A stretch of 64,000 nt of DNA from Sulfitobacter sp. THAF37 (GTDB lineage Bacteria; Pseudomonadota; Alphaproteobacteria; Rhodobacterales; Rhodobacteraceae): the NCBI RefSeq assembly GCF_009363555.1, contig NZ_CP045372.1, positions 868,001-932,000 on the forward strand, read 5' to 3'. Shown here piece by piece: positions 26,661 through 39,418 of the stretch (positions within the stretch are counted from its first letter, which is position 1; each line of letters starts with the position of its first letter). The notes beneath the pieces were generated by a model. It did no database searches, was not told the DNA's origin, and saw only the letters and a list, made by a program, of their open reading frames with translations. The position numbers were made by a program, and so were the translations under genes.

Positions 26661-26746
26661 GCCCAGGTGGCGGAATGGTAGACGCGCTAGCTTCAGGTGC
26701 TAGTACTGGCAACGGTGTGGAGGTTCGAGTCCTCTCCTGGGCACCA
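26661..26746 (+). tRNA. tRNA-Leu, anticodon CAG
   Basis: An 86-nt class II tRNA with the CCA encoded. Acceptor strands GCCCAGG and CCTGGGC pair fully. The anticodon stem CTAGC/GCTAG encloses loop TTCAGGT (anticodon CAG, reading CUG). There is a long variable arm and the T arm GAGG-TTCGAGT-CCTC. Its last 18 bases are duplicated at 38058-38075, marking it as the integration site of the following island. Confidence 0.95.
26729..26746 (+). repeat. attL: 3' end of tRNA-Leu
   Basis: GTCCTCTCCTGGGCACCA forms the 3' T-stem, acceptor and CCA of the tRNA and is identical to 38058-38075. Tyrosine recombinases of tRNA-targeting islands commonly use this part as the core site. Confidence 0.85.
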
Positions 26747-26806
26747 ATCCATCCCAACTAAGTCACTGATAGTGATAGGCTTTTTCGGATCGGCGGCCTT
26801 GTGAGG

Positions 26807-26824
26807 TCCATAATCAGGTCCACA
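26807..26824 (+). repeat. left copy of an 18-bp direct repeat near the island ends
   Basis: TCCATAATCAGGTCCACA recurs with one change (TCCACAATCAGGTCCACA) at 37983-38000. The two copies lie 61 and 58 bp inside the respective att repeats. Each contains a sub-repeat (GTCCAYA). Position and pairing suggest integrase arm-type binding sites. Confidence 0.5.
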
Positions 26825-26830
26825 TTGCCA

Positions 26831-27141
26831 ATGACTAGAAGCTTCGTGTCCAAACATATTCGCACTGACAGAAACGGCACTCGGAAGTATCGCCGCAGAG
26901 TCCCCAAAGCTCTTCAGCCAGTTCAGGGAAAACGAGAGATCGTTAAAGTCCTTGGCAAAAGCGAGCTTGAGGCGATGCGGAACTACCCTGCCGTTCACGA
27001 GCACGTTGAACAGCTTCTAAGGTCTGCACATAGCTCTTCAGATGCCGGTGAATTGGCAACGATCAAGGACAACATAGAAGCTCAATTTGCCGAATTGGGA
27101 GCCGAACCATATTCGCGCGGCCAGAACGAAGACGAAAGGAC
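26831..27141 (+). pseudogene. tyrosine-type integrase, N-terminal fragment cut by an IS3-family element
   Basis: About 104 residues remain, starting MTRSFVSKHIRTDRNGTRKY. The lysine/arginine-rich opening with RKYRRRVPKALQPVQGKREIVKVLG resembles the beta-strand arm-binding start of integrases of tRNA-targeting islands. The following helix-rich part (EAMRNYPAVHEHVEQLL) resembles the core-binding domain. The frame runs into the IS at 27142 and ends artificially at 27175. The catalytic half with R...HxxR...Y is not found right of the IS. Position directly beside the tRNA and the attL core supports the identification more than the sequence does. Confidence 0.65.
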
Positions 27142-27291
27142 TGAGCTACCCCCCGAATTTCGGACACTGACATAAGCTACGATTTGCAGTCTGCTGATCT
27201 TCGACGAGAAGGAGATCAGAGATGTCGAAACGGAAGCAGCACGCGCCCGCGTTCAAGGCCAAGGTCGCGCTGGAAGCCCTGAAAGGCGAGG

Positions 27292-27442: not shown

Positions 27443-27606
27443 CTGCTCGAAGGCGCGTCCGGCGTGTTCGAGTGCGGGGGCCGTAAGAAGCCCGAGATTG
27501 ACGAGGAGCAGGTGAAGGAGCTCCACGCCAAGATCGGGGAGCTGGCGGTGGCCAACTCTTTTTTGGAACGAAAGCTGAAGCCCTGGGGCGGGAAGTGAGG
27601 CGCGGC

Positions 27607-28476
27607 ATGATCGAGCCGGACCACCCGGATCTGTCGATCGCGCGCTCGTCTTTCTACTACACGCCCAAGGGCGAGACCGAACAGAACCTCGGCCTGATGC
27701 GGCGGATCGACGAGCGTCCTGCGGACCTAGAGACGCCGTTCTTCGGCGTTCGACAGATGACCTGGCACCTGCGCAACGACGGGCATCTCGTAAACGAGAA
27801 GCGGATACGCCGGCTGATGCGCCTGATGGGGCTCATGCCGATTTACCAAAAGCCCAACACAAGCAGGCCGACGAAGGGGCACAAGACCTATCCCTACCTG
27901 CTGAGAGGTCTGCGTGTGGAACGCCCGAACCAGGTCTGGTGCTCGGATATCACCTATCTGCCCATGCGGCGTGGGTTCCTCTACCTCGTGGCGATCATGG
28001 ACTGGCATACCCGCAAAGTTCTGTCCTGGCGGATCTCGAACACGCTGGAGGCCGACTTCTGCGTCGAAGCGCTGACCGAGGCCATCCACAAGTTCGGCCC
28101 ACCTGAGATCATGAATACGGACCAGGGATCCCAGTTCACGTCCTTCGCCTGGACGGACCGGCTCCGCCGATCGGGCGTGCGGATCTCCCCCTCTCATGCA
28201 TGTAAACATGCACTGCCGGGGCAGTGGATGGATGGGAAAGGCCGGTTCCTCGACAACATCTTCATCGAAAGGTTGTGGCGCACCCTGAAATACGAGTGTG
28301 TCTACTTGCATGCTTGGGAGACAGGATCGGAGACGAAGGAGGCGATCCAGAAATGGATGACCTTCTACAACCACCAGCGCCCTCACTCAGCCCTCGGCGG
28401 CAAGCCACCGGCGCTGGTCTATTGGCAAAGAAATGATATCAACCAACCCGATCAGCAGGTGCAACGAGTAGCTTAA
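27607..28476 (+). CDS. IS3-family transposase OrfB with 13-residue insertion
   Basis: 289 residues of a DDE integrase-core transposase: QVWCSDITYLP carries the first catalytic Asp, NTDQGSQFTSFAW the second, and NIFIERLWRTLKYE the Glu. Between the last two, 13 residues PSHACKHALPGQW interrupt the usual ISMDGKGRFLDN, so the D-E spacing is 48 rather than 35. The N-terminus also seems shortened before ARSSFYYTPKGETEQN. The frame is open, but catalytic activity is doubtful. The ATG at 27607 follows the orfA stop; normally the product is made by -1 frameshifting from orfA. Confidence 0.85.
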   Translation: MIEPDHPDLSIARSSFYYTPKGETEQNLGLMRRIDERPADLETPFFGVRQMTWHLRNDGHLVNEKRIRRLMRLMGLMPIYQKPNTSRPTKGHKTYPYLLRGLRVERPNQVWCSDITYLPMRRGFLYLVAIMDWHTRKVLSWRISNTLEADFCVEALTEAIHKFGPPEIMNTDQGSQFTSFAWTDRLRRSGVRISPSHACKHALPGQWMDGKGRFLDNIFIERLWRTLKYECVYLHAWETGSETKEAIQKWMTFYNHQRPHSALGGKPPALVYWQRNDINQPDQQVQRVA

Positions 28477-28575
28477 ATTACGCCAGATCCTGTCCAACGA
28501 TCAGGGAGTAGCTCAGTAACAAGGGCTGAGCTAAAAGCTCACGCTGACGACGGAGCCCGATTGGTCAGTCAAGCC

Positions 28576-29400
28576 ATGGGTATCTATAAGCCAGCTTACA
28601 CCGACATCGCTTTGAGCGTCAGGCAGACCTTAAACAGTCCTTATGCGAACAAAGAGGTTGTCCATCGTGCGGACGGCAGTTGGCTTTATCCCTATTTCCA
28701 AGAGAACCCAGTCCCCAATCAAAGAGACAAAGAAGCTACTAATCGTGGTTTGGTAAAGTGTATGGAGGATGGCGTTCCCATAGCCGTCCTAATTCAAACA
28801 AGGCCGAAGCCAGGGGTTGAGTAACAAGTCTTAGGGCTTGCAAGAGTTCGGAGTTGGTCGAATGGGTACTTCTACCTAGAAGGCTCTAAGGCGGTAGGGG
28901 ACCTGCTATCTGTGGATGATGTCGAAGACGCTGCTTGGGATCGTATAACAGTTGAGACACTCCCAAATGACGAGGTTTCCTTCGACCCCAAGGAAGATGA
29001 TGACCAAAGGGTAAGAGCTATAGCCGAAGTTGTCCGGAGACGAGGTCAGACCAAGTTTAGGAGGCAGTTGTTGGAGGCTTATTCGAATACCTGCGCTGTA
29101 ACAGGATGTGACGCTTTCGAGGCCTTGGAGGCAGCACACATAACCCCATACCTCGGAGAATAGACTAACCATCCTCCGAATGGAATTCTTCTCAGAGCTG
29201 ATATTCATTCTCTCTTTGACTTAGGGTTAATCTCAATCGACCCAGAGACGTTGGAGGTGGTTTTATCGCCTTCCTTAGAGAGCACCAGTTATGGAAGTCT
29301 CTCCGGCGTAAGAATAGCTAGTGTTCGGGATGCAAGATCTAGCCTCAGCACAGAAGCTCTTCGGCAGCATTTCAAATGGAGCGGACTCGCTTCTGTATGA
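28576..29400 (+). pseudogene. SRA-like/HNH endonuclease gene with two in-frame stop codons
   Basis: One reading frame runs from about 28519 to the TGA at 29398-29400, broken only by TAA at 28822 and TAG at 29161. Before the first stop, GSWLYPYFQENP and DGVPIAVLIQTRPKPGVE match the N-terminal base-sensing (SRA-like) part of modification-dependent HNH nucleases. After it, VLGLARVRSWSNGYFYLEG continues that domain. The HNH part is RRQLLEAYSNTCAVTGCD, EAAHITPYLGE-stop-TNHPPNGILLRADIHSLFDLGL. The stops sit where relatives usually have Tyr and Gln. It is probably a decayed restriction-type defence gene. The left flank is the IS, so the original start may be lost. Confidence 0.75.
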
Positions 29401-30560: not shown

Positions 30561-31440
30561 TGAGCTACTCCCTGATCGTTGGACAGGATCTGGCGTAATT
30601 TAAGCTACTCGTTGCACCTGCTGATCGGGTTGGTTGATACCATTTCTTTGCCAATAGACCAGCGCCGGTGGCTTGCCGCCGAGGGCTGAGTGAGGGCGCT
30701 GGTGGTTGTAGAAGGTCATCCATTTCTGGATCGCCTCCTTCGTCTCCGATCCTGTCTCCCAAGCATGCAAGTAGACACACTCGTATTTCAGGGTGCGCCA
30801 CAACCTTTCGATGAAGATGTTGTCGAGGAACCGGCCTTTCCCATCCATCCACTGCCCCGGCAGTGCATGTTTACATGCATGAGAGGGGGAGATCCGCACG
30901 CCCGATCGGCGGAGCCGGTCCGTCCAGGCGAAGGACGTGAACTGGGATCCCTGGTCCGTATTCATGATCTCAGGTGGGCCGAACTTGTGGATGGCCTCGG
31001 TCAGCGCTTCGACGCAGAAGTCGGCCTCCAGCGTGTTCGAGATCCGCCAGGACAGAACTTTGCGGGTATGCCAGTCCATGATCGCCACGAGGTAGAGGAA
31101 CCCACGCCGCATGGGCAGATAGGTGATATCCGAGCACCAGACCTGGTTCGGGCGTTCCACACGCAGACCTCTCAGCAGGTAGGGATAGGTCTTGTGCCCC
31201 TTCGTCGGCCTGCTTGTGTTGGGCTTTTGGTAAATCGGCATGAGCCCCATCAGGCGCATCAGCCGGCGTATCCGCTTCTCGTTTACGAGATGCCCGTCGT
31301 TGCGCAGGTGCCAGGTCATCTGTCGAACGCCGAAGAACGGCGTCTCTAGGTCCGCAGGACGCTCGTCGATCCGCCGCATCAGGCCGAGGTTCTGTTCGGT
31401 CTCGCCCTTGGGCTCGTAGTAATAGGATGCCCAACAATAA
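30561..31440 (-). mobile_element. IS3-family insertion sequence, copy 2, 5'-truncated
   Basis: Inverted relative to copy 1. The right end (TGAGCTACTCCCTGATCGTT at 30561) and most of orfB match copy 1 closely; one visible coding change is Asp to Gly near the orfB end. Identity stops near 31413, where the codons before PKGETEQN differ (YYYE against FYYT). No orfA, no left inverted repeat. Confidence 0.82.
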
Positions 31441-31490
31441 CAATCAACAATAACCCCCGTTTTTTGAAGTCGGTTTCTTAGACCCCCCAC
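30600..31490 (-). pseudogene. IS3-family orfB, copy 2, with a foreign 5' end
   Basis: The last roughly 270 codons equal copy 1 orfB, including the 13-residue insertion PSHACKHALPGQW between the catalytic Asp and Glu. The first 26 codons (31413-31490) are unrelated except for SYYYEP next to PKGETEQN, which looks like the corresponding segment of another IS3 relative. Without orfA and the left end it cannot move by itself. Confidence 0.75.
31465..31477 (+). repeat. 13-bp direct repeat, first copy
   Basis: TGAAGTCGGTTTC occurs here and at 31605-31617, 140 bp apart, between the truncated IS and the serine recombinase gene. Confidence 0.45.
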
Positions 31491-31681: not shown

Positions 31682-32231
31682 ATGCTCATCGGATACGCAC
31701 GTACATCAACCCTGGAACAGAAGGCCAGCATAGAGGCTCAAAATGAGTCCTTGAGGGCCCTTGGCTGTGAAAGGTTGGGGGGAGCAAACGAGCTCTGTTG
31801 GCGCCAGAGAGGCTCTCAGGGGCGCTGTGAGCTTCTGTCGGGAAGGAGATACCCTTGCGGTCACAAAGCTGGACCGTTTGGCTAGGTCCGTAAGGCACCT
31901 CGGAGAGATCGTTGACGAGCTCGAAGGTAATGGCGCTGGGCTTCGCATTTTGGACCTTGGGCTCGACACTTCAAATGCCACGGGGAAACTTATGCTCAAT
32001 GTCCTGGGCTCAGTGGCTCAGTTCGAACGAGAGATGATGCTGGAGCGTCAGCGTGAAGGCATTGCCAAGGCGAAGGCGCTGGGCAAGTACAAGGGCAGAA
32101 CTCCGAAGGCCCGTCAGAAGGCCTCGGAGATGCAGGAACTGCTGGCTCAAGGTGCCAGCAAACGTGAGATCGCAAAGCAGCTTGGATTGTCCGAAAGGTC
32201 TGTCTATCGGGTGCTTGCAAATTGTTGTTAA
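31682..32231 (+). pseudogene. serine recombinase (resolvase/invertase), frameshifted
   Basis: AAGGAGGGCAATCAG precedes the ATG at 31682. The first frame gives MLIGYARTSTLEQKASIEAQ with catalytic Ser9, up to about 31777. The second frame (one base shifted) continues EQTSSVGAREALRGAVSF, KLDRLARSVRHLGEIVDEL, GSVAQFEREMMLERQREGIAKAKALGKYKGR and a C-terminal helix-turn-helix GASKREIAKQLGLSERSVYRVL. The shift is at a run of six G (31777-31782). Adding or removing one base restores a normal Pin/TnpR-length protein of about 182 residues. Confidence 0.85.
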
Positions 32232-32374
32232 GCTTTGCTGTTCTTGTCGTTTGGCCGTCAACTTCGGCGGCCAGAAAGTCTGGTTCGGCAATCGGCCCGA
32301 AGCCGACTTTGAATACAGTGAATACAGTTTTTGAATGCTGCGACAGCAATTCGCATTGCTGCCATTCGGTATCG

Positions 32375-34549
32375 TCAATCTTCACCGGCGTCGCGTCGTT
32401 CCCATGCAACCAGAAACCGGCTGATGGTAGACTTTTGCTGCTCGTCGAGGCCATCGCTTCCAAGGGCCTCATTCAACCGCCGTCTGAACTCGTCCACATC
32501 AAGCAGTCGGTCAATTCCATCGACTTGTGCGCGGTCGTTTTCCCGTTGCACGAGATCGCCTGGTGCGCCACCGAAACCTCCCATGCCATGACTGTATGAT
32601 TTCCCCAGGAAAGCTGAAGCGAGTTGGCAGAGCTTCGTGTCGTCCCCTAAAGCACGAGTTATGTAGTTCATGACCTCAACTGCCCCATCAGGCTGCAATC
32701 TGTCCCAATCATAGAGAAGGCGGGCAGGGGTTTTGGCAGAGAGGATGGTGTCACTCGCTGCGGCGGCACGAAGCAGTTCCAGTGATCGTGCTTGCAGCCG
32801 CTCAGCCGCCACATGGGTCGTTAGTGTTTCAGCTTCCGAAGAAGGTTCGCTGTCGGGATTGCTTGGATGGTAGTCTTGCCAAGCGTCATTGCTGATATCG
32901 AGGTGCCATTGCAGGGTCGCGCCCTCAATTGATCTGGTAAGTATCTCCGTTCTTTCATGGAGAGTTGTCCGGTCCAAAAGGATTGATCGGAGCAGCCAAT
33001 GCAACCTAAGCCTGTTGTTGCCGAATGATGCGAAACCGCGCCCCTCATCTTGTTCCAAGAATAATTCGTCGGCCATACCAAACAATGCCGACAACAGCTT
33101 CTCCCCCTGATCAAGGGAGATATTGAGTCCATGGGCGGTTAACTCATCAAGGATATAGGAGGCTTTGGTCCGCCCTTCAGCTTGAGTGATCGAAACTGCC
33201 TCCCGAACACGATCTTGAATCTCTTTGACTGTTCGAGTGTCGTCGATGAGGTAGTCGAGTTCTGCCTTTGGAATCGTCTTGGGGGAGACAGAAAATCGGA
33301 AGTAGGTGTCAAAGTGCTCGGCAGAACAAACTCGCCTTTGACGAGCCCATTCTCTGGTGCCGGAATACGACATGTTCGCGAAGACGTTCTGCAACTGAGG
33401 GAACAGTCTCATGAGTGCATCCCGAAGATGCTCATGATCCTCCTCAGACTCACTGCGAAGAAGCATCGATGTGTATTGTGCAGAACGGGTCTCACGCTGA
33501 TCATACCTATCGTTCTGACCAGCGTTAAGGATGGCTGATTTGTTCTGTCGTATGGCCCTATAGACCGCTGGACGGAAGACTCGCAGAGTTTCAAGACTCA
33601 CAAAATCTGGAAAAAAGACATCCGATTTGATCGGGGTGATCGTGATCGAAATCGTATTGGCCAACCGAAATACATCCCGTGGCGTCTTCAATTCTGGCGC
33701 CACGATGGAATGGAACAAGTTGCCAAACTCGACTGGGTCAATTTCAGGCAGATCAGCGGCCAACCCATTCAGCACCTCACCCATCATGACGTTCAGATGT
33801 GATTGATCGGGTTGAGGAAGCTCGAACCCCGCTTGGATAATCTTCTCAAGATAATGCGCACCTTCGGATGGAAACCGACGTGCAACGGCCTGCTCGGTGG
33901 CCTCGCGGTCGTAGGCCAAGAGGTACATAACGTTTGGAAGCCGTCCTACCGACTTGACCAGCCGGAAAATGACCAGCGCCTCCTCTGGTGAAAGGCGATC
34001 CAAATCGTCAATAACGACGAGAAACTTCTTCCCTGCTTCACGAAGGGCATCGGCCAGGGTTGCCTGTAGGTCCTCCGCAGCTTCGCCCTGCTCTATGAAA
34101 CCACCGAGGGCGTCGAGGGTTGCAGTCGTTGCTTTCTCTCCCACCGACCCTGCAAACAAGCCGACGGCCATTCCCGCCAAGCTGCTTGCGCCTGCAAGGT
34201 TGGCCCCCAACTTGCGCAGTGCCCCGGCGGCCTTCGTCTGGTCCGACAGGACGGGTGAGAGCCCAGCATAGAGTTCCTTGAAGAACCCTACAGCCAGGGC
34301 GTCTTCGGTTCGATACATCCACGCCGGAAAGTTGATCACATCAAGATCGGGTGCGTCCTTCGCAAGATGGTGCCGGACCAGATTGATAACGCTGCTCTTG
34401 CCAGAGCCCCAAGGGCCATAGATTGCCGCGACGCTGCCAAGCGGGTTTTCGATACTACGAATGCAATCGCTTATGGCACTGGCGAACGGATCAAAGCCAA
34501 ATCGATCACTGTCGGGGCTGGTGATTGGAATGTCGTCAAAATTACCCAT
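32375..34549 (-). CDS. KAP-family P-loop NTPase
   Basis: 724 residues. Walker A YGPWGSGKSS is at 44-53 and Walker B KKFLVVIDDLDRLSPEEA at about 174-190, with ALVIFRLVKSVGRLPNVMYLLAYDRE as the sensor region, the typical KAP order. Between Walker A and B lies a hydrophobic stretch (119-137, GASSLAGMAVGLFAG) where KAP proteins carry membrane segments. The C-terminal half (400-724) is helical without a recognised domain. The family is named after Kidins220/ARMS and PifA; F-plasmid PifA blocks phage T7. ATG at 34549 has GAGG six bases upstream. The gene lies 73 bases after the membrane-protein gene, same strand, and is intact in a decayed island. Confidence 0.88.
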   Translation of the reverse strand: MGNFDDIPITSPDSDRFGFDPFASAISDCIRSIENPLGSVAAIYGPWGSGKSSVINLVRHHLAKDAPDLDVINFPAWMYRTEDALAVGFFKELYAGLSPVLSDQTKAAGALRKLGANLAGASSLAGMAVGLFAGSVGEKATTATLDALGGFIEQGEAAEDLQATLADALREAGKKFLVVIDDLDRLSPEEALVIFRLVKSVGRLPNVMYLLAYDREATEQAVARRFPSEGAHYLEKIIQAGFELPQPDQSHLNVMMGEVLNGLAADLPEIDPVEFGNLFHSIVAPELKTPRDVFRLANTISITITPIKSDVFFPDFVSLETLRVFRPAVYRAIRQNKSAILNAGQNDRYDQRETRSAQYTSMLLRSESEEDHEHLRDALMRLFPQLQNVFANMSYSGTREWARQRRVCSAEHFDTYFRFSVSPKTIPKAELDYLIDDTRTVKEIQDRVREAVSITQAEGRTKASYILDELTAHGLNISLDQGEKLLSALFGMADELFLEQDEGRGFASFGNNRLRLHWLLRSILLDRTTLHERTEILTRSIEGATLQWHLDISNDAWQDYHPSNPDSEPSSEAETLTTHVAAERLQARSLELLRAAAASDTILSAKTPARLLYDWDRLQPDGAVEVMNYITRALGDDTKLCQLASAFLGKSYSHGMGGFGGAPGDLVQRENDRAQVDGIDRLLDVDEFRRRLNEALGSDGLDEQQKSTISRFLVAWERRDAGED

Positions 34550-34622
34550 CAACTACCTCGTGTAGGTTTGCCCCAAGGAAGGACCATTTGCAGAAAAACG
34601 AAGTCCATGCGCTTGTTTGTGC

Positions 34623-35933
34623 TCATCGTGACAAAGTCAGAAACGCTTCAAAGCCCCTGTTGCTTGGATATCGTTCACCCCAAGCCCTTATCGTCGTGCC
34701 ATCAATGATCATTTCATTTTCAAAGACTTCGGAGCTTGGAATGAGTGAATCAATTGCGATATCTAAATTCTCGACAGCTTTTTCGCAAAGCAATGCACCA
34801 ATGACTCTGAACTTCTGGACTGCTTCGCCGCTGTCGAAGTCATCCATGAATTTTCCAGTCAGTTTGAGCGTAGTAACGACGCCCTCTTGTCCTTCGATGT
34901 AGAAGGCAGCTTTGCTCGGAAGGACATGGCTATCAAGGTCGACATATTCTGAACTGGCCCAGTATTCATCGTAGCCCTTGTGGTAGTCGTTTGTCCTCAA
35001 TCCCTTCTCTCTAAGGAACTCTCTGGCTTCAAAAGGGCTCCAGCCCTTCGTCGGGTCCACGTTTGGTGGAGCTTCTTCGTCTCTTTCGTAGTTGAGTATG
35101 TCGGTGATGATCTGGTCCACATCTGCATTGGTTTTTGCAGGGAGCGTGTGGAATTGGCGTGTTGCCCGCCGTAGAAGCCAGGGCCGCAACGGGAAGATCA
35201 GAAAGAAGCGTTTACGAGCATATTTTTTCAGTTCGTCAGACTGAAAGGCCTTTTGATCAATCTGAATACGGGCTTGTTCGACGTGCGAGCAGCAAAACAG
35301 TAGGTAGAAAACTGGGATGCTTCCGACGGTCATTAGGATCGGCAGGACAAAGTTGCGCCCCGTATCTGTTGTTAAGAACTGGTCTGGCTGTGACCAAATC
35401 GACGACACGGAGTTCCAGACCAAAACGGTTGCAAATGTTGCAAGGATTAATTCCAGCAGGACCTTTGCCTTCGCATACTCTGGTTTTGTTGCTGCAAAGG
35501 CCAGCGTGACCGCCAAGGAGAAGAGGATAGGGACCAAGACCAACTCGGTTACGAGGCTGAAACTGTAGGCAACCACGATGAACTCAAAGATGCCGCCGAG
35601 TTTTAAGCTGCCGCGAAACAGGTTGCGGAAATACTGATCATCTTCCTTCGATTGCAGTGCTCGTCCAGCAAAGACACATCCCCCCATCACGAACCACAAA
35701 ACTGTAGGTGGAAGCTGGGACTTCGACCAAAATCCTAACTCTGCCATTAGCCAGCACAGAACTGTCACGTTTAGGGCTACTATGCCGAAGAATAGTAAGA
35801 GCTTTGGAGCGATCAGTGTCTTTGCAACGCTCCAAAGACTGCTTCGGAGGTCTGCCCTGGATAGACAAAACAGGATGCCAAGGATGATCCACAGGCCAGC
35901 GGCAATTTCACGATTGTTGAAGGTTTCCTGCAA
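34623..35933 (-). CDS. multi-spanning membrane protein paired with the KAP NTPase
   Basis: 436 residues. About six hydrophobic segments occupy the first 215 (around 10-25, 42-65, 76-92, 112-140, 155-175, 192-212). The remaining half is hydrophilic and probably cytosolic: basic ARKRFFLIFPLRPWLLRR, then KGWSPFEAREFLREKGL and a beta-rich end. No family recognised. It is the upstream gene of a two-gene unit with the KAP NTPase. The start is odd: the frame opens after a TAA with AAAGGG and then ATC-AAT-ATC-GAA, with no ATG or GTG; the first usual start is the TTG at 35933, which has no ribosome site. Confidence 0.75.
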   Translation of the reverse strand: MQETFNNREIAAGLWIILGILFCLSRADLRSSLWSVAKTLIAPKLLLFFGIVALNVTVLCWLMAELGFWSKSQLPPTVLWFVMGGCVFAGRALQSKEDDQYFRNLFRGSLKLGGIFEFIVVAYSFSLVTELVLVPILFSLAVTLAFAATKPEYAKAKVLLELILATFATVLVWNSVSSIWSQPDQFLTTDTGRNFVLPILMTVGSIPVFYLLFCCSHVEQARIQIDQKAFQSDELKKYARKRFFLIFPLRPWLLRRATRQFHTLPAKTNADVDQIITDILNYERDEEAPPNVDPTKGWSPFEAREFLREKGLRTNDYHKGYDEYWASSEYVDLDSHVLPSKAAFYIEGQEGVVTTLKLTGKFMDDFDSGEAVQKFRVIGALLCEKAVENLDIAIDSLIPSSEVFENEMIIDGTTIRAWGERYPSNRGFEAFLTLSR

Positions 35934-36128
35934 CCAAGTGAGAAACTGTTCGATATTGATATCCCTTTAACTCGCAAAGTTAGGCATTCAACGGCATCGT
36001 AACTATGACCTGCATCTTGGCTCGAAGAATTTTCCACCGTGGCAAGGTGCGGACGGGGAAAGAGACAAATGTCCGCTCCCAGGACCGTCAACATAAGCTT
36101 TTCGCACGCGCAGCTAAAGACCGTTTTC

Positions 36129-37674
36129 GGCCCATTCTGTGGAAAAACACCCGTTCGCGAGCGCAGAATTCTGGCATCCGAAAGCGGCGCAAGCGCCTTA
36201 CCTGTCAGGCTGTCCGCACTTGCTGCGGTGCAGGAAATATCTTGGCCAGTTTCCTGAGGTTTTGGGCGGTGGCGGCGAGGAGGAATTCGTCCTTTGCCCC
36301 GCATGGACCACGTAATCGGAGCCTGTTCAGGCCGAGGATGCGCTTGAGGTGGGCGAATAGCATTTCGACCTTCTTCCTCAGCTTCATCGAGATCACGTAT
36401 TGCTCGGTTTTCGCAATGTCGCGGGCAACCTGGCGGGCGTCTTCATGTTCCTCGCGGGTGATCGACCGGAAGTCCATGTTGGGACAGCAACGCGACTTCG
36501 AGGGGCAGGCCTGGCAGGTGTGCTTCAGGCACCGGTATTTGGCGACGCCCTTGCCGGTCGGCCCGCGGTTCGGATCGGAGTAGTTCCGGCGGAATTGCTT
36601 CAGTTCGTGGCCTTCCGGGCAGATGTATTGATTGTTCTCGGCATCCCACTCAAAGTCGGCCCGGGTCCAGGTCCCGTCGCTGCGCCCCGACTTGTCGAAG
36701 ACAGGGATGTGCGGGGCAATTTTGCGGTCAACCAGCCATCCTAACATCGGCGCGGTGCCATAGGCCGTGTCCGCGATCAGGCGCTCTGGGTGCAAGTCGA
36801 ACTTGGCCTTCACCCGCTCAAGCATGGTCTTCGTCGATCCGACCTCGGCCTGACGGATCGACCTCGTGGCCTCCACGTCCACAATCACGCCATGGTCCGT
36901 ATCGATCAGGTAATTGTCGGAATAGCTGAAGAAAGCCGGACCTTTACGGGCCGCCGTCCACTGGCTGGCCGGGTCGGAATGCGAGGTAAACTTGGGCTGC
37001 ACCTCGCTGGCCGCGCCAAAGGCGACTTCGTCCAGGGTCTCCAGATACTCACGGACGGCCCGGGGCGCGTCGGCAGGGTCGATCTGCCCGGCGTCCCAAT
37101 CCTCTTTCGGCGTCGAGTTCTGCTTGTTGGCATCCGCTTCGATCAGACTTGCGTCGACCGCCATGCGCTGCCCGCTGACCAGGCCCTCAGCGATGCACCG
37201 TGCGACCGTCACCTCGAACAGATGGCGCAGCAACTCGCTGTCCCGGAACCGCCCGTGTCTATTCTTGGAAAATGTCGAGTGATCGGGAACTCGGTCGGCG
37301 AGGTCGAGGCGGCAAAACCAGCGATATGCCAGGTTCAAATGCACCTCTTCGCACAGCCGCCGCTCCGACCGGATGCCGAAGCAATAGCCGACCAGCAGCA
37401 TCCGGATCAGCAACTCGGGATCGACCGAGGGGCGGCCCGTGTGACTGTAGAACTCTGCAAGATGGGCACGGATACTGCTCAGGTCGACGAAGCGGTCGAT
37501 GGACCGAAGCAGGTGATCTTGCGGGACGTGATCTTCCAGCGAGAACTCGTAGAACAACGCCGGCTGCGCTTCCTGCCTCGGTCCCATCATCGCCATTCCT
37601 CCCGCCCAATGTCGGAATTGAATCAGCAGGATGCCCATCGATCAAGCGTGAGTTTTTCAACAAAATACGCCCTT
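36129..37674 (-). mobile_element. IS1182-family insertion sequence (about 1.55 kb)
   Basis: Imperfect terminal inverted repeats: the left end reads GGCCCATTCTGTGGAAAAAC and the right end, inward, GGGCGTATTTTGTTGAAAAA. It holds one transposase gene. GC is higher than in the island around it. Exact outer ends are uncertain by a few bases and no target duplication was established. Confidence 0.75.
36205..37590 (-). CDS. IS1182-family transposase
   Basis: 461 residues. The N-terminal part has FYEFSLEDHVPQDHLLRSID and RPSVDPELLIRMLLVGYCFGIRSER; DHSTFSKNR precedes the DDE domain, with MAVDASLIEADAN (first Asp), LIADTAYGTAPMLGW (second Asp) and KVEMLFAHLKRILGL (Glu region). A cysteine-rich segment CQACPSKSRCCPN matches the family zinc-like insertion. 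GGGAGGA six bases before the ATG at 37590 sets the start. Apparently intact. Confidence 0.9.
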   Translation of the reverse strand: MMGPRQEAQPALFYEFSLEDHVPQDHLLRSIDRFVDLSSIRAHLAEFYSHTGRPSVDPELLIRMLLVGYCFGIRSERRLCEEVHLNLAYRWFCRLDLADRVPDHSTFSKNRHGRFRDSELLRHLFEVTVARCIAEGLVSGQRMAVDASLIEADANKQNSTPKEDWDAGQIDPADAPRAVREYLETLDEVAFGAASEVQPKFTSHSDPASQWTAARKGPAFFSYSDNYLIDTDHGVIVDVEATRSIRQAEVGSTKTMLERVKAKFDLHPERLIADTAYGTAPMLGWLVDRKIAPHIPVFDKSGRSDGTWTRADFEWDAENNQYICPEGHELKQFRRNYSDPNRGPTGKGVAKYRCLKHTCQACPSKSRCCPNMDFRSITREEHEDARQVARDIAKTEQYVISMKLRKKVEMLFAHLKRILGLNRLRLRGPCGAKDEFLLAATAQNLRKLAKIFPAPQQVRTA

Positions 37675-38057: not shown

Positions 38058-38075
38058 GTCCTCTCCTGGGCACCA
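38058..38075 (+). repeat. attR: duplicated tRNA-Leu 3' end
   Basis: GTCCTCTCCTGGGCACCA, identical to 26729-26746. The bases before it (TTGCACATAG) cannot form the rest of a tRNA, so it is only the target duplication at the island's right end. Confidence 0.85.
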
Positions 38076-38140: not shown

Positions 38141-39418
38141 TTAATCCACTTCTGGTTCCAACCGTTTCGAACCCGTTTCCTCTAAAGCCAATAGTGCAGC
38201 AAGAGATGCTGGAAGCTGGTATGCATCATTCATTCTGTCAAATTCCTGCCCGTACTCCAGGTAGATATCCAAAAACTTCGAATTAAGCTGAGGATTTACA
38301 TATGTATGGACCTTGTCCGCCCATGGTTCGTACCAATGCTGCGGTATATAGAGCCTTTGCTTCGGCAAATGACCTCGCTGCGACAGTAGGAAAATGCAAT
38401 GTCTCATTTCGCGTACAATGACTTCCCTATTATTTCGAAAGCCAAACTGTCGCTCTTCGTTTTTTCGATTTGCTCTCACAAACCGCCTTACGAGCGACTT
38501 GAACAATTCTGTAGAGCAATGATCAGTGTAATCAATTCCATGAATCGCTTTGATCAGCGAGATGTGCAGGTTCTTTTCCTTGGGAGCATCCTTTTCTGTA
38601 CTGTATTGACCCCGGTATAGATCGGGATATCGCTCAGACAGGATCCGCTGAGTAATGTTATACGGGAGTACGGATTGAGGTGCGTGAAGCTCCGTCGAAG
38701 TACCCAAGGACTTGAGCAAAGCGTTGAGGCGTTTGAGAGCGAAGGGTGACCCGTACGAAGAATATCGGTGCAAGGGGCGGTTTAGATGCGCCTCTCCCAA
38801 CCCACTTCCATGATAGATATTGTTTGGTAATTCCATCATGGCGGGCAGCATTCTCGACGTGAGGCGTTTACCAATCGTCTCGATCGACCGGACATTCTGC
38901 AGGCCCTCAATCAGCCTCGATGAATTTGCGCTAACGATTTTTGGCGAAAGCCCAAGCTCTCTCAAAGTTCCGAGCATCAAACGGCTGTCTTTGCCTCCTC
39001 CCATCGTAACTATGTTGCCACCCAGTGAGGTGTCGAAGTTCAATTCGGTTCTTTCGGTTGTTACTCTGATATCAAAACCGAGTTGCGGTCCTATTGCTTC
39101 AAAATACGCGGCAACCCTATCTGAAACCGCAAAATCGAAAGAAAACTCAACCAAACCAGAGAATTTACCAAAGACTGGTCCGCCTATGTTGGTCAACTCA
39201 AGAAGAGGGTATAGTCCATCCCAAATCGGATGATGTTTGATGGCACCAGCCGGATCTTGGAATCCGAAAGTGTAGTCTTCCGACCCTTGTTCCCAGCTCA
39301 CGTTCGCAAGAAATTTGTAGGTATCAGGCGTTTTCCGAGGCTTATGAACAAAGACTTTGACGGTAGCGCTTGGGTCAATCGGAACAGATCTTTTCTGCTG
39401 GTTGATCGCATTTCGCAT
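38141..39418 (-). CDS. orphan PP-loop ATPase-like protein
   Basis: 425 residues. IVTMGGGKDSRLMLGTLRELGLSPK near residue 140 is a PP-loop (SGGxDS-type) AMP-forming nucleotide site, preceded by about 130 residues of unknown fold and followed by a long helical part. AAAGG six bases upstream supports the ATG at 39418. PP-loop enzymes adenylate substrates (QueC, TilS, asparagine synthetase); the size and the GGGKDS form also recall MurL-type UDP-MurNAc-peptide epimerases, but I cannot confirm this. GC is clearly lower than in the tad genes beside it, which suggests transfer. It lies just outside attR, so it is not part of the tRNA-Leu island as now delimited. Confidence 0.55.
   Translation of the reverse strand: MRNAINQQKRSVPIDPSATVKVFVHKPRKTPDTYKFLANVSWEQGSEDYTFGFQDPAGAIKHHPIWDGLYPLLELTNIGGPVFGKFSGLVEFSFDFAVSDRVAAYFEAIGPQLGFDIRVTTERTELNFDTSLGGNIVTMGGGKDSRLMLGTLRELGLSPKIVSANSSRLIEGLQNVRSIETIGKRLTSRMLPAMMELPNNIYHGSGLGEAHLNRPLHRYSSYGSPFALKRLNALLKSLGTSTELHAPQSVLPYNITQRILSERYPDLYRGQYSTEKDAPKEKNLHISLIKAIHGIDYTDHCSTELFKSLVRRFVRANRKNEERQFGFRNNREVIVREMRHCIFLLSQRGHLPKQRLYIPQHWYEPWADKVHTYVNPQLNSKFLDIYLEYGQEFDRMNDAYQLPASLAALLALEETGSKRLEPEVD

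What the first reader, a model, noticed from the sequence alone, without database searches (positions are those of the whole stretch)
32375..35933. Intact KAP NTPase plus membrane protein in a decayed tRNA island: candidate anti-phage system
Seen: a 724-residue KAP P-loop NTPase with intact Walker A and B and a co-oriented 436-residue multi-spanning protein with a cytosolic tail. All other long cargo genes of the island are broken (integrase cut, nuclease with two stops, recombinase frameshifted). Known: the KAP family includes F-plasmid PifA, which excludes phage T7, and KAP ATPases occur in defence systems such as Qat. Inferred: the pair was kept by selection and acts at the membrane, perhaps as a two-component abortive-infection or exclusion system. 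I know of no described system with exactly this pair.
Basis: partly seen in the sequence, partly recalled or inferred. Interest (0 to 1): 0.78.

Follow-up and report, generated by a model that had tools for sequence, protein, structure and literature searches.

The report
PifA-like NTPase with swappable membrane partner
Next to a relative of the F-plasmid phage-exclusion protein PifA sits an undescribed membrane protein whose relatives pair with several different ATP-driven proteins, so it may be a shared membrane part of several bacterial antiphage systems; this is inferred from gene neighbourhoods and has not been tested.

Summary
The two genes are real and open, and both evolve under purifying selection. 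The NTPase is a divergent full-length member of the known PifA family (PADLOC PifA profile 376.9 bits, residues 6-709; 25% identical to F-plasmid PifA). So half of the pair is already described. The partner is not: a predicted 7-TM protein with a roughly 210-residue cytosolic domain, with no hit in Pfam, NCBIfam, PADLOC, PHROGs or PDB sequences and no significant fold match, but 181 homologues.

Six of seven close loci with both flanks visible carry the pair. Most share an end upstream of the membrane gene in otherwise unrelated flanks. Three relatives carry a PD-Lambda-4 gene after the NTPase; the window and one relative lack it there.

In more distant loci the membrane protein sits beside other P-loop proteins: an SF1 helicase (four loci), AAA_13 ATPases (two) and a UvrD-like helicase (one). 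In 12 of 25 loci it has no such neighbour, including two phage-like contigs. PifA relatives are also often without it.

Best reading: a mobile abortive-infection cassette with the NTPase as sensor/switch and the 7-TM protein as an exchangeable membrane effector. Co-carried, independent defences remain a serious rival. Caveat: the N-terminal extension of the window's membrane gene, open in relatives, holds a stop.

The parts
32375..34552 (-). PifA-like KAP P-loop NTPase; ORF from TTG 34552, probable start ATG 34549 (724 aa)
   Evidence: Pfam KAP_NTPase 137.5 bits; PADLOC PifA 376.9 bits over 6-709; 25% identity over 719 columns to F PifA; dN/dS 0.08-0.12 against L009-L012
34623..35933 (-). 7-TM membrane protein of an unnamed family, N-out/C-in predicted, cytosolic C-terminal domain about residues 227-436
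   Evidence: AF2 pLDDT 85.2, C-terminal domain alone 90.9; hydropathy and charge; 181 homologues; no hit in Pfam, PADLOC, NCBIfam, PDB sequences or PHROGs
35934..36133 (-). conserved leader region and shared outer end of the cassette
   Evidence: homology with L008, L009, L011, L012, L013, L027 begins at window 36126-36140 while flanks beyond differ; L010 begins only at 35997
35934..35987 (-). 18-codon N-terminal extension of the membrane gene, open in L009-L013 and L027 but with an in-frame stop here and in L008
32292..32374 (-). shared right end of the cassette; in L009 and in part in L012 the same end follows a PD-Lambda-4 gene instead of PifA
   Evidence: blastn window 32292-32370 = L009 15596-15665; 32334-32369 in L012; L008 matches from 32293
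32294..32310 (+). short sequence that resembles, inverted, the opposite end (about 36113-36132, -); possible terminal inverted repeat, weak in the window
   Evidence: by eye; with a pattern made from these ends, both ends are found within 2 mismatches only in L009, and only the right end in the window and L008; pattern without mismatch in 2 of 31 genomes, once in each, own included
26661..26746 (+). tRNA-Leu(cag), island attachment site (repeat 26729-26746)
38058..38075 (+). 18-bp direct repeat of the tRNA 3' end, right end of the island
26801..27175 (+). truncated integrase-like frame
   Evidence: weak DUF6538 match below its cut-off
31761..32231 (+). serine resolvase fragment without its N-terminus
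   Evidence: PF00239 matched from position 45
36205..37638 (-). transposase of the DUF772/DDE type upstream of the cassette

Best explanation
The two genes form a small mobile antiphage cassette. The PifA-like KAP NTPase (shown: family, motifs, selection) senses a phage component or an infection state and changes state with ATP (inferred from F PifA, which responds to T7 gp1.2/gp10). The 7-TM protein (shown: predicted topology, conserved family, repeated adjacency to different P-loop NTPases) is the membrane-acting partner: its cytosolic domain receives the signal and the TM part depolarises or permeabilises the inner membrane, stopping the infected cell before progeny are made (inferred). The membrane protein is a module that has been combined several times with different NTPase sensors: PifA here, SF1 helicase, UvrD-like helicase or AAA_13 ATPase elsewhere. 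Likelihoods by step: defence-associated mobile cassette about 0.85; the two proteins work together about 0.55; the 7-TM protein as the membrane-lesion effector about 0.45.
For: PifA homology over the full length. Same gene order in the window and L008-L012; the PifA label fits one gain and one loss on the tree. Seven exact contig-length coincidences between the membrane-protein and PifA homologue lists, two of them the contigs of L008 and L012, so five further (same contig, not proof of adjacency). Common cassette ends in unrelated flanks. Both genes purifying, also across the recent window-L008 split (PifA 7 N/11 S, p 0.0008; membrane gene 7 N/7 S, p 0.025). Recurrent pairing: SF1 helicase + membrane gene in L019, L020, L021, L026 with 4-bp overlaps, and a 5.5-kb block 86% identical between an Oleiagrimonas (L020) and a Chachezhania (L026) locus of different proteobacterial classes (classes recalled). 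AAA_13 + membrane gene in L022 and in a 25%-identical Arcobacter plasmid homologue. Walker-A neighbour (400+ aa, same strand, within 150 bp) for 11 of 24 membrane genes against 9 of 130 control ORFs. Passages in PMC8594841 and PMC9311878 describe F PifA as causing depolarisation, or as membrane-associated with ATP loss.
Against: Twelve of 25 loci (window included) have no P-loop neighbour by this rule. L013 keeps the membrane gene without PifA (an AAA_14/DUF4143 gene lies about 240 bp upstream, beyond the limit), and L010 keeps it with a shortened PifA. None of 15 PifA-like viral loci has the partner and none is annotated beside pifA of the F plasmid, so PifA proteins can act without it. Collapsed to lineages the association is weak (4 of 16, p 0.02). 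The control ORFs are mechanical, some probably not genes, which lowers their rate. The L026 membrane gene is frameshifted. The window copy may start poorly. No pore-like fold was recognised.
Confidence: 0.5

Rival explanations
1. Two independent defence genes travel together. The PifA-like NTPase excludes phages by itself, as F PifA does, and the 7-TM protein is a separate superinfection-exclusion protein. Neighbours differ because cargo accumulates behind a common cassette end.
For: Each gene occurs without the other: membrane gene in L013, L014, L016, L017 and in two phage-like contigs near terminase/portal (L041) or tail genes (L042); PifA-like genes without it in 15 of 15 viral loci examined and in L040 by profile, and in F and L031 by annotation. 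The cassette carries PD-Lambda-4 behind the same end in L009 and L012.
Against: 4-bp overlaps with SF1 helicase and AAA_13 partners, the helicase pair conserved between two proteobacterial classes, and AAA_13 pairing at two distant points of the tree suggest more than chance co-carriage.
Confidence: 0.32
2. The membrane protein is a restraint or anchor rather than an effector: it keeps the NTPase inactive at the membrane, and the NTPase itself causes the lesion.
For: F PifA is reported to be membrane-associated (passage in PMC9311878) and has no such partner annotated beside it. The large cytosolic domain fits a docking role.
Against: The membrane gene persists without any NTPase next to it in several loci.
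Confidence: 0.1
3. Not antiphage: the cassette serves plasmid or conjugative-element exclusion, or is neutral cargo.
For: Distant membrane-gene homologues lie on plasmids. PMC8594841 itself raises other primary roles for RexAB and PifA (passage).
Against: Neighbouring PD-Lambda-4, Lamassu-like, ThsB-TIR and Mrr-like genes in relatives; purifying selection.
Confidence: 0.08

Closest known systems
PifA (F-plasmid T7 exclusion)
   Same: Full-length homologue of the NTPase: PADLOC PifA profile residues 6-709, 25% identity to F PifA, shared Walker A/B.
   Different: F pifA lies next to pifC and no 7-TM neighbour is annotated. Here the neighbour is a 7-TM protein, and no PifC-like gene was noticed beside it (not searched by profile).
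Tmn (KAP NTPase with transmembrane segments)
   Same: A KAP NTPase and membrane segments act in one system (passage in PMC11846954).
   Different: In Tmn both are in one polypeptide. Here the NTPase has no 19-residue segment at hydropathy 1.6 or more (best 1.55) and the TM part is a separate gene.
RexAB of lambda (works-like comparison; the RexA sensor/RexB channel roles are recalled)
   Same: A soluble sensor plus a multi-TM protein, with depolarisation of infected cells (PMC8594841 passage, groups RexAB and PifA).
   Different: No sequence relation was tested; the sensor here is a KAP NTPase.
Mokosh (for the SF1-helicase relatives L019, L020, L021, L026)
   Same: The helicase part of L019 and L020 matches MkoC at 235 and 229 bits.
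   Different: No PLD domain was found in the two scanned (E<=0.01); a 7-TM gene follows instead. PLD in Mokosh types I and II is from a passage of PMC10952713.
Qat (QatA KAP ATPase)
   Same: KAP NTPase domain.
   Different: 56 bits against the 600-bit QatA cut-off.

Membership tests
PifA | KAP P-loop NTPase domain with Walker A and B | tested here: met
   PF07693 137.5 bits; motifs, invariant in 24 aligned sequences including F PifA
PifA | homology along the whole PifA profile, not the P-loop alone | tested here: met
   376.9 bits, protein 6-709, profile 7-707 of 720; F PifA itself 963 bits
PifA | exclusion of T7-like phages triggered by phage proteins, with a membrane lesion | not testable with these tools
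   activity described for F PifA (passages)
Qat system | QatA equivalog | tested here: not met
   56 bits, cut-off 600
Tmn | transmembrane segments inside the KAP protein | tested here: inconclusive
   best 19-residue hydropathy 1.55 at 119-137, by Kyte-Doolittle only
RexAB | sequence homology of the membrane protein to RexB | not tested
   -
Mokosh (the SF1-helicase relatives, not the window) | PLD domain together with the helicase | tested here: not met
   no PLD match at E<=0.01 in the L019 and L020 helicases, although MkoC matches their helicase part
7-TM family as a described family | match to a curated profile (Pfam, NCBIfam, PADLOC, PHROGs) | tested here: not met
   0 families for the window protein

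The most novel reading that the evidence does not exclude
The 7-TM protein is the common membrane effector of a modular class of two-gene abortive-infection systems, in which unrelated P-loop NTPase sensors (PifA/KAP, SF1 helicase, UvrD-like helicase, AAA_13) are exchanged beside one membrane-permeabilising module.
Probability: 0.33. Interest if true: 0.8.

Novelty: new variant of a known kind. Interest (0 to 1): 0.57.

Why it matters
How PifA, which has no obvious membrane-spanning part, makes infected cells leak is, as far as I know, unresolved (recalled). A PifA lineage encoded with a dedicated 7-TM partner offers a two-gene handle on that question. If the 7-TM family is a shared effector, it links several NTPase-based defence modules that are now filed separately, and it gives a search handle for new systems that profile libraries miss.

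Tried and rejected
Qat membership was rejected on the score. Gene 38141-39418 (PP-loop-like by eye) was not pursued: it lies outside the right attachment repeat. A fold for the 7-TM protein or for its C-terminal domain alone: Foldseek against PDB gave no match at E<=0.001 for either, nor against viral models for the whole protein. VIA-align Z stayed at 6.7 or below and 6.1 or below. Phage tail-terminator/neck proteins recur in the weak rows, tied with tRNA-synthetase folds, so nothing is claimed. A transposon: the ends resemble a short inverted repeat, but both ends pass a 2-mismatch pattern (made after seeing them) only in L009, I saw no target-site duplication by eye, and L008 and L013 (by eye) hold further copies of the motif nearby, so recombination at dispersed repeats is equally possible. 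Widening: the phages collection and E. coli genomes with the Salmonella homologue gave no match, and plasmids only the Salmonella and Arcobacter records already seen. A second protein search by profile gave 175 proteins, mostly the same. Genome draws found 6 of 390 (order, single-protein query, one of them weak and partial), 3 of 385 (class), 4 of 398 (phylum) and 5 of 295 (family), the own genome counted in each. PifA at E<=1e-40 in the same order draw: 2 of 390, own included. L018, L027, L028, L045, L046 and L047 were left out of neighbour counts because the gene or a flank is cut or the match is partial. Ten answered paper searches, seen as listings, showed no title or abstract describing this pair or the 7-TM family; the library is open-licence only. 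PMC9519451 was searched for PD-Lambda-4 and gave no passage.
Full report
WHAT IS THERE. The two ORFs are as described: 32375-34552 (-), a KAP NTPase, and 34623-35933 (-), a multi-spanning protein, about 70 bp apart on one strand. They sit in an 11.3-kb island between tRNA-Leu and an exact 18-bp copy of its 3' end at 38058-38075. GC per kilobase is 0.49-0.59 inside the island and stays low to about 40 kb; elsewhere in the window it is mostly 0.58-0.69. Integrase-like, HNH-like and resolvase frames are truncated or interrupted. In the genus draw 20 of 21 genomes, own included, match the left flank. In seven of them fetched with 1.5 kb past the tRNA, no window sequence from beyond the tRNA was found. 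That fits an acquisition in this lineage, although the right side of an empty site was not seen.

THE NTPASE IS A PIFA RELATIVE. The PADLOC PifA profile matches residues 6-709 at 376.9 bits; F-plasmid PifA itself scores 963 and is 25% identical over 719 columns. Walker A and B residues are invariant in 24 aligned sequences. There are 1562 homologues at E<=0.001 among the 7999 candidates scored. This half is a new member of a known family.

THE MEMBRANE PROTEIN IS AN UNDESCRIBED FAMILY. No Pfam, PADLOC, NCBIfam, PDB-sequence or PHROGs match, but 181 homologues at E<=0.001, with distant ones on Salmonella and Arcobacter plasmids at about 25%. AlphaFold2 gives mean pLDDT 85.2; model and charge pattern fit seven membrane helices (N-out, C-in) and an alpha/beta cytosolic domain (domain alone pLDDT 90.9). 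Fold searches gave nothing significant.

A SMALL MOBILE CASSETTE. Of 21 genome loci, six are at 81% identity or more with both flanks visible (L008-L013); L027 is cut. With the window that makes seven: six have the NTPase next (window, L008-L012, shortened in L010), and L013 has the membrane gene without it. Homology begins at nearly the same point about 200 bp upstream of the membrane gene in L008, L009, L011, L012, L013 and L027, while sequences beyond it differ; L010 begins later. In L009, L011 and L012 a PD-Lambda-4_A gene follows PifA (2028.6 bits in L009, the one scanned; the others by nucleotide similarity). The window and L008 lack it at that place, yet share the far end found after PD-Lambda-4 in L009 and, in part, in L012; no PD-Lambda-4 similarity was found in the window. 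L009 and L012 share a 7.9-kb block with the same two ends. The ends resemble a short inverted repeat by eye, but within two mismatches both ends are found only in L009; in the window and L008 only the right end is. The exact pattern occurs in 2 of 31 genomes, once in each, the own one included. L012 has TnsB- and TniQ-like genes upstream, and L009 has Lamassu-like and ThsB-TIR genes.

PARTNER SWAPPING. More distant membrane genes sit beside other P-loop proteins: an SF1 helicase with MkoC similarity in L019, L020, L021 and L026 (profile scans for L019 and L020 only; L021 and L026 are 86-87% identical to L020 and to each other); an AAA_13/PDC-S06 ATPase in L022 and Arcobacter L030; and a UvrD-like helicase in L015. 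Junctions overlap by 4 bp in L019-L022 and L026. L020 (Oleiagrimonas) and L026 (Chachezhania), of different proteobacterial classes (classes recalled, families), share 5.5 kb at 86% nucleotide identity covering both genes, although the L026 membrane gene is frameshifted. Counted by strict Walker A motif, 11 of 24 loci (window not among them) have such a neighbour against 9 of 130 control ORFs from the same loci; the Pfam-identified UvrD partner of L015 would make 12. The control ORFs are mechanical, and the rows are related: collapsed to 16 lineages (my grouping plus L023 and L025), 4 of 16 remain, p 0.02. In the p 0.0036 printed the UvrD lineage was counted although it fails the strict motif, so I do not use it. 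On a tree of 23 membrane proteins the six labels (one of them 'none') need 8 changes; PifA needs two, which fits one gain and one loss. Deep branches are long and their places unsure.

AGAINST THE PAIR AS A UNIT. The other 12 of 25 loci (window included) have no P-loop neighbour by this rule: L013, L014, L016, L017, L023, L024, L025, L029, L041, L042 (an Mrr-like gene follows), L043 and L044. In L013 an AAA_14/DUF4143 gene lies about 240 bp upstream, beyond the 150-bp limit. L041 and L042 are phage-like contigs with terminase and portal or tail genes. PifA relatives are also often without the partner: 0 of 15 viral loci examined, of 19 fetched, has the membrane family within 4 kb or the contig end. 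One of them, L063, has a 271-aa frame with six hydrophobic segments 22 bp downstream.

SELECTION. Against L009-L013 dN/dS is 0.09-0.18 for the membrane gene; against L009-L012 it is 0.08-0.12 for the NTPase. The recent window-L008 comparison gives 0.30 and 0.20, with fewer amino-acid changes than neutral for both (p 0.025 and 0.0008). The window and L008 share a stop in the 18-codon N-terminal extension that is open in six relatives; since both genes still look constrained, translation from the TTG at 35933 or a dispensable extension is plausible but untested.

HOW IT MAY WORK. F PifA is described as membrane-associated, activated by T7 gp1.2 and gp10, with depolarisation or ATP loss (passages in PMC8594841 and PMC9311878). 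By analogy the NTPase would be the sensor/switch and the 7-TM protein the membrane effector. This is inference: nothing here measures phage protection, interaction or ion flow.

VERDICT.

Noticed in passing
window 38141-39418 (-): 425-aa frame with a GGKDS PP-loop-like motif (by eye) just outside the right attachment repeat, in low-GC sequence; no Pfam or PADLOC match, MurL-type NCBIfam match far below its cut-off.
   Followed up: no
window 28477-29400 (+): HNH-like endonuclease frame (by eye) interrupted by two in-frame stops.
   Followed up: partly
window 27595-28476 (+) and 30600-31490 (-): Two nearly identical IS3-type transposase frames in opposite orientation inside the island.
   Followed up: no
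L042:7935-10414 and L041:7968-9311: Membrane-family genes placed against the direction of neighbouring structural genes in phage-like contigs, one followed by an Mrr-like nuclease gene.
   Followed up: partly
L063:1247-4328: PifA-like gene followed 22 bp downstream by a 271-aa frame with six hydrophobic segments that the membrane-family profile does not match: possibly another membrane partner of PifA.
   Followed up: no
[not shown]
   Followed up: no
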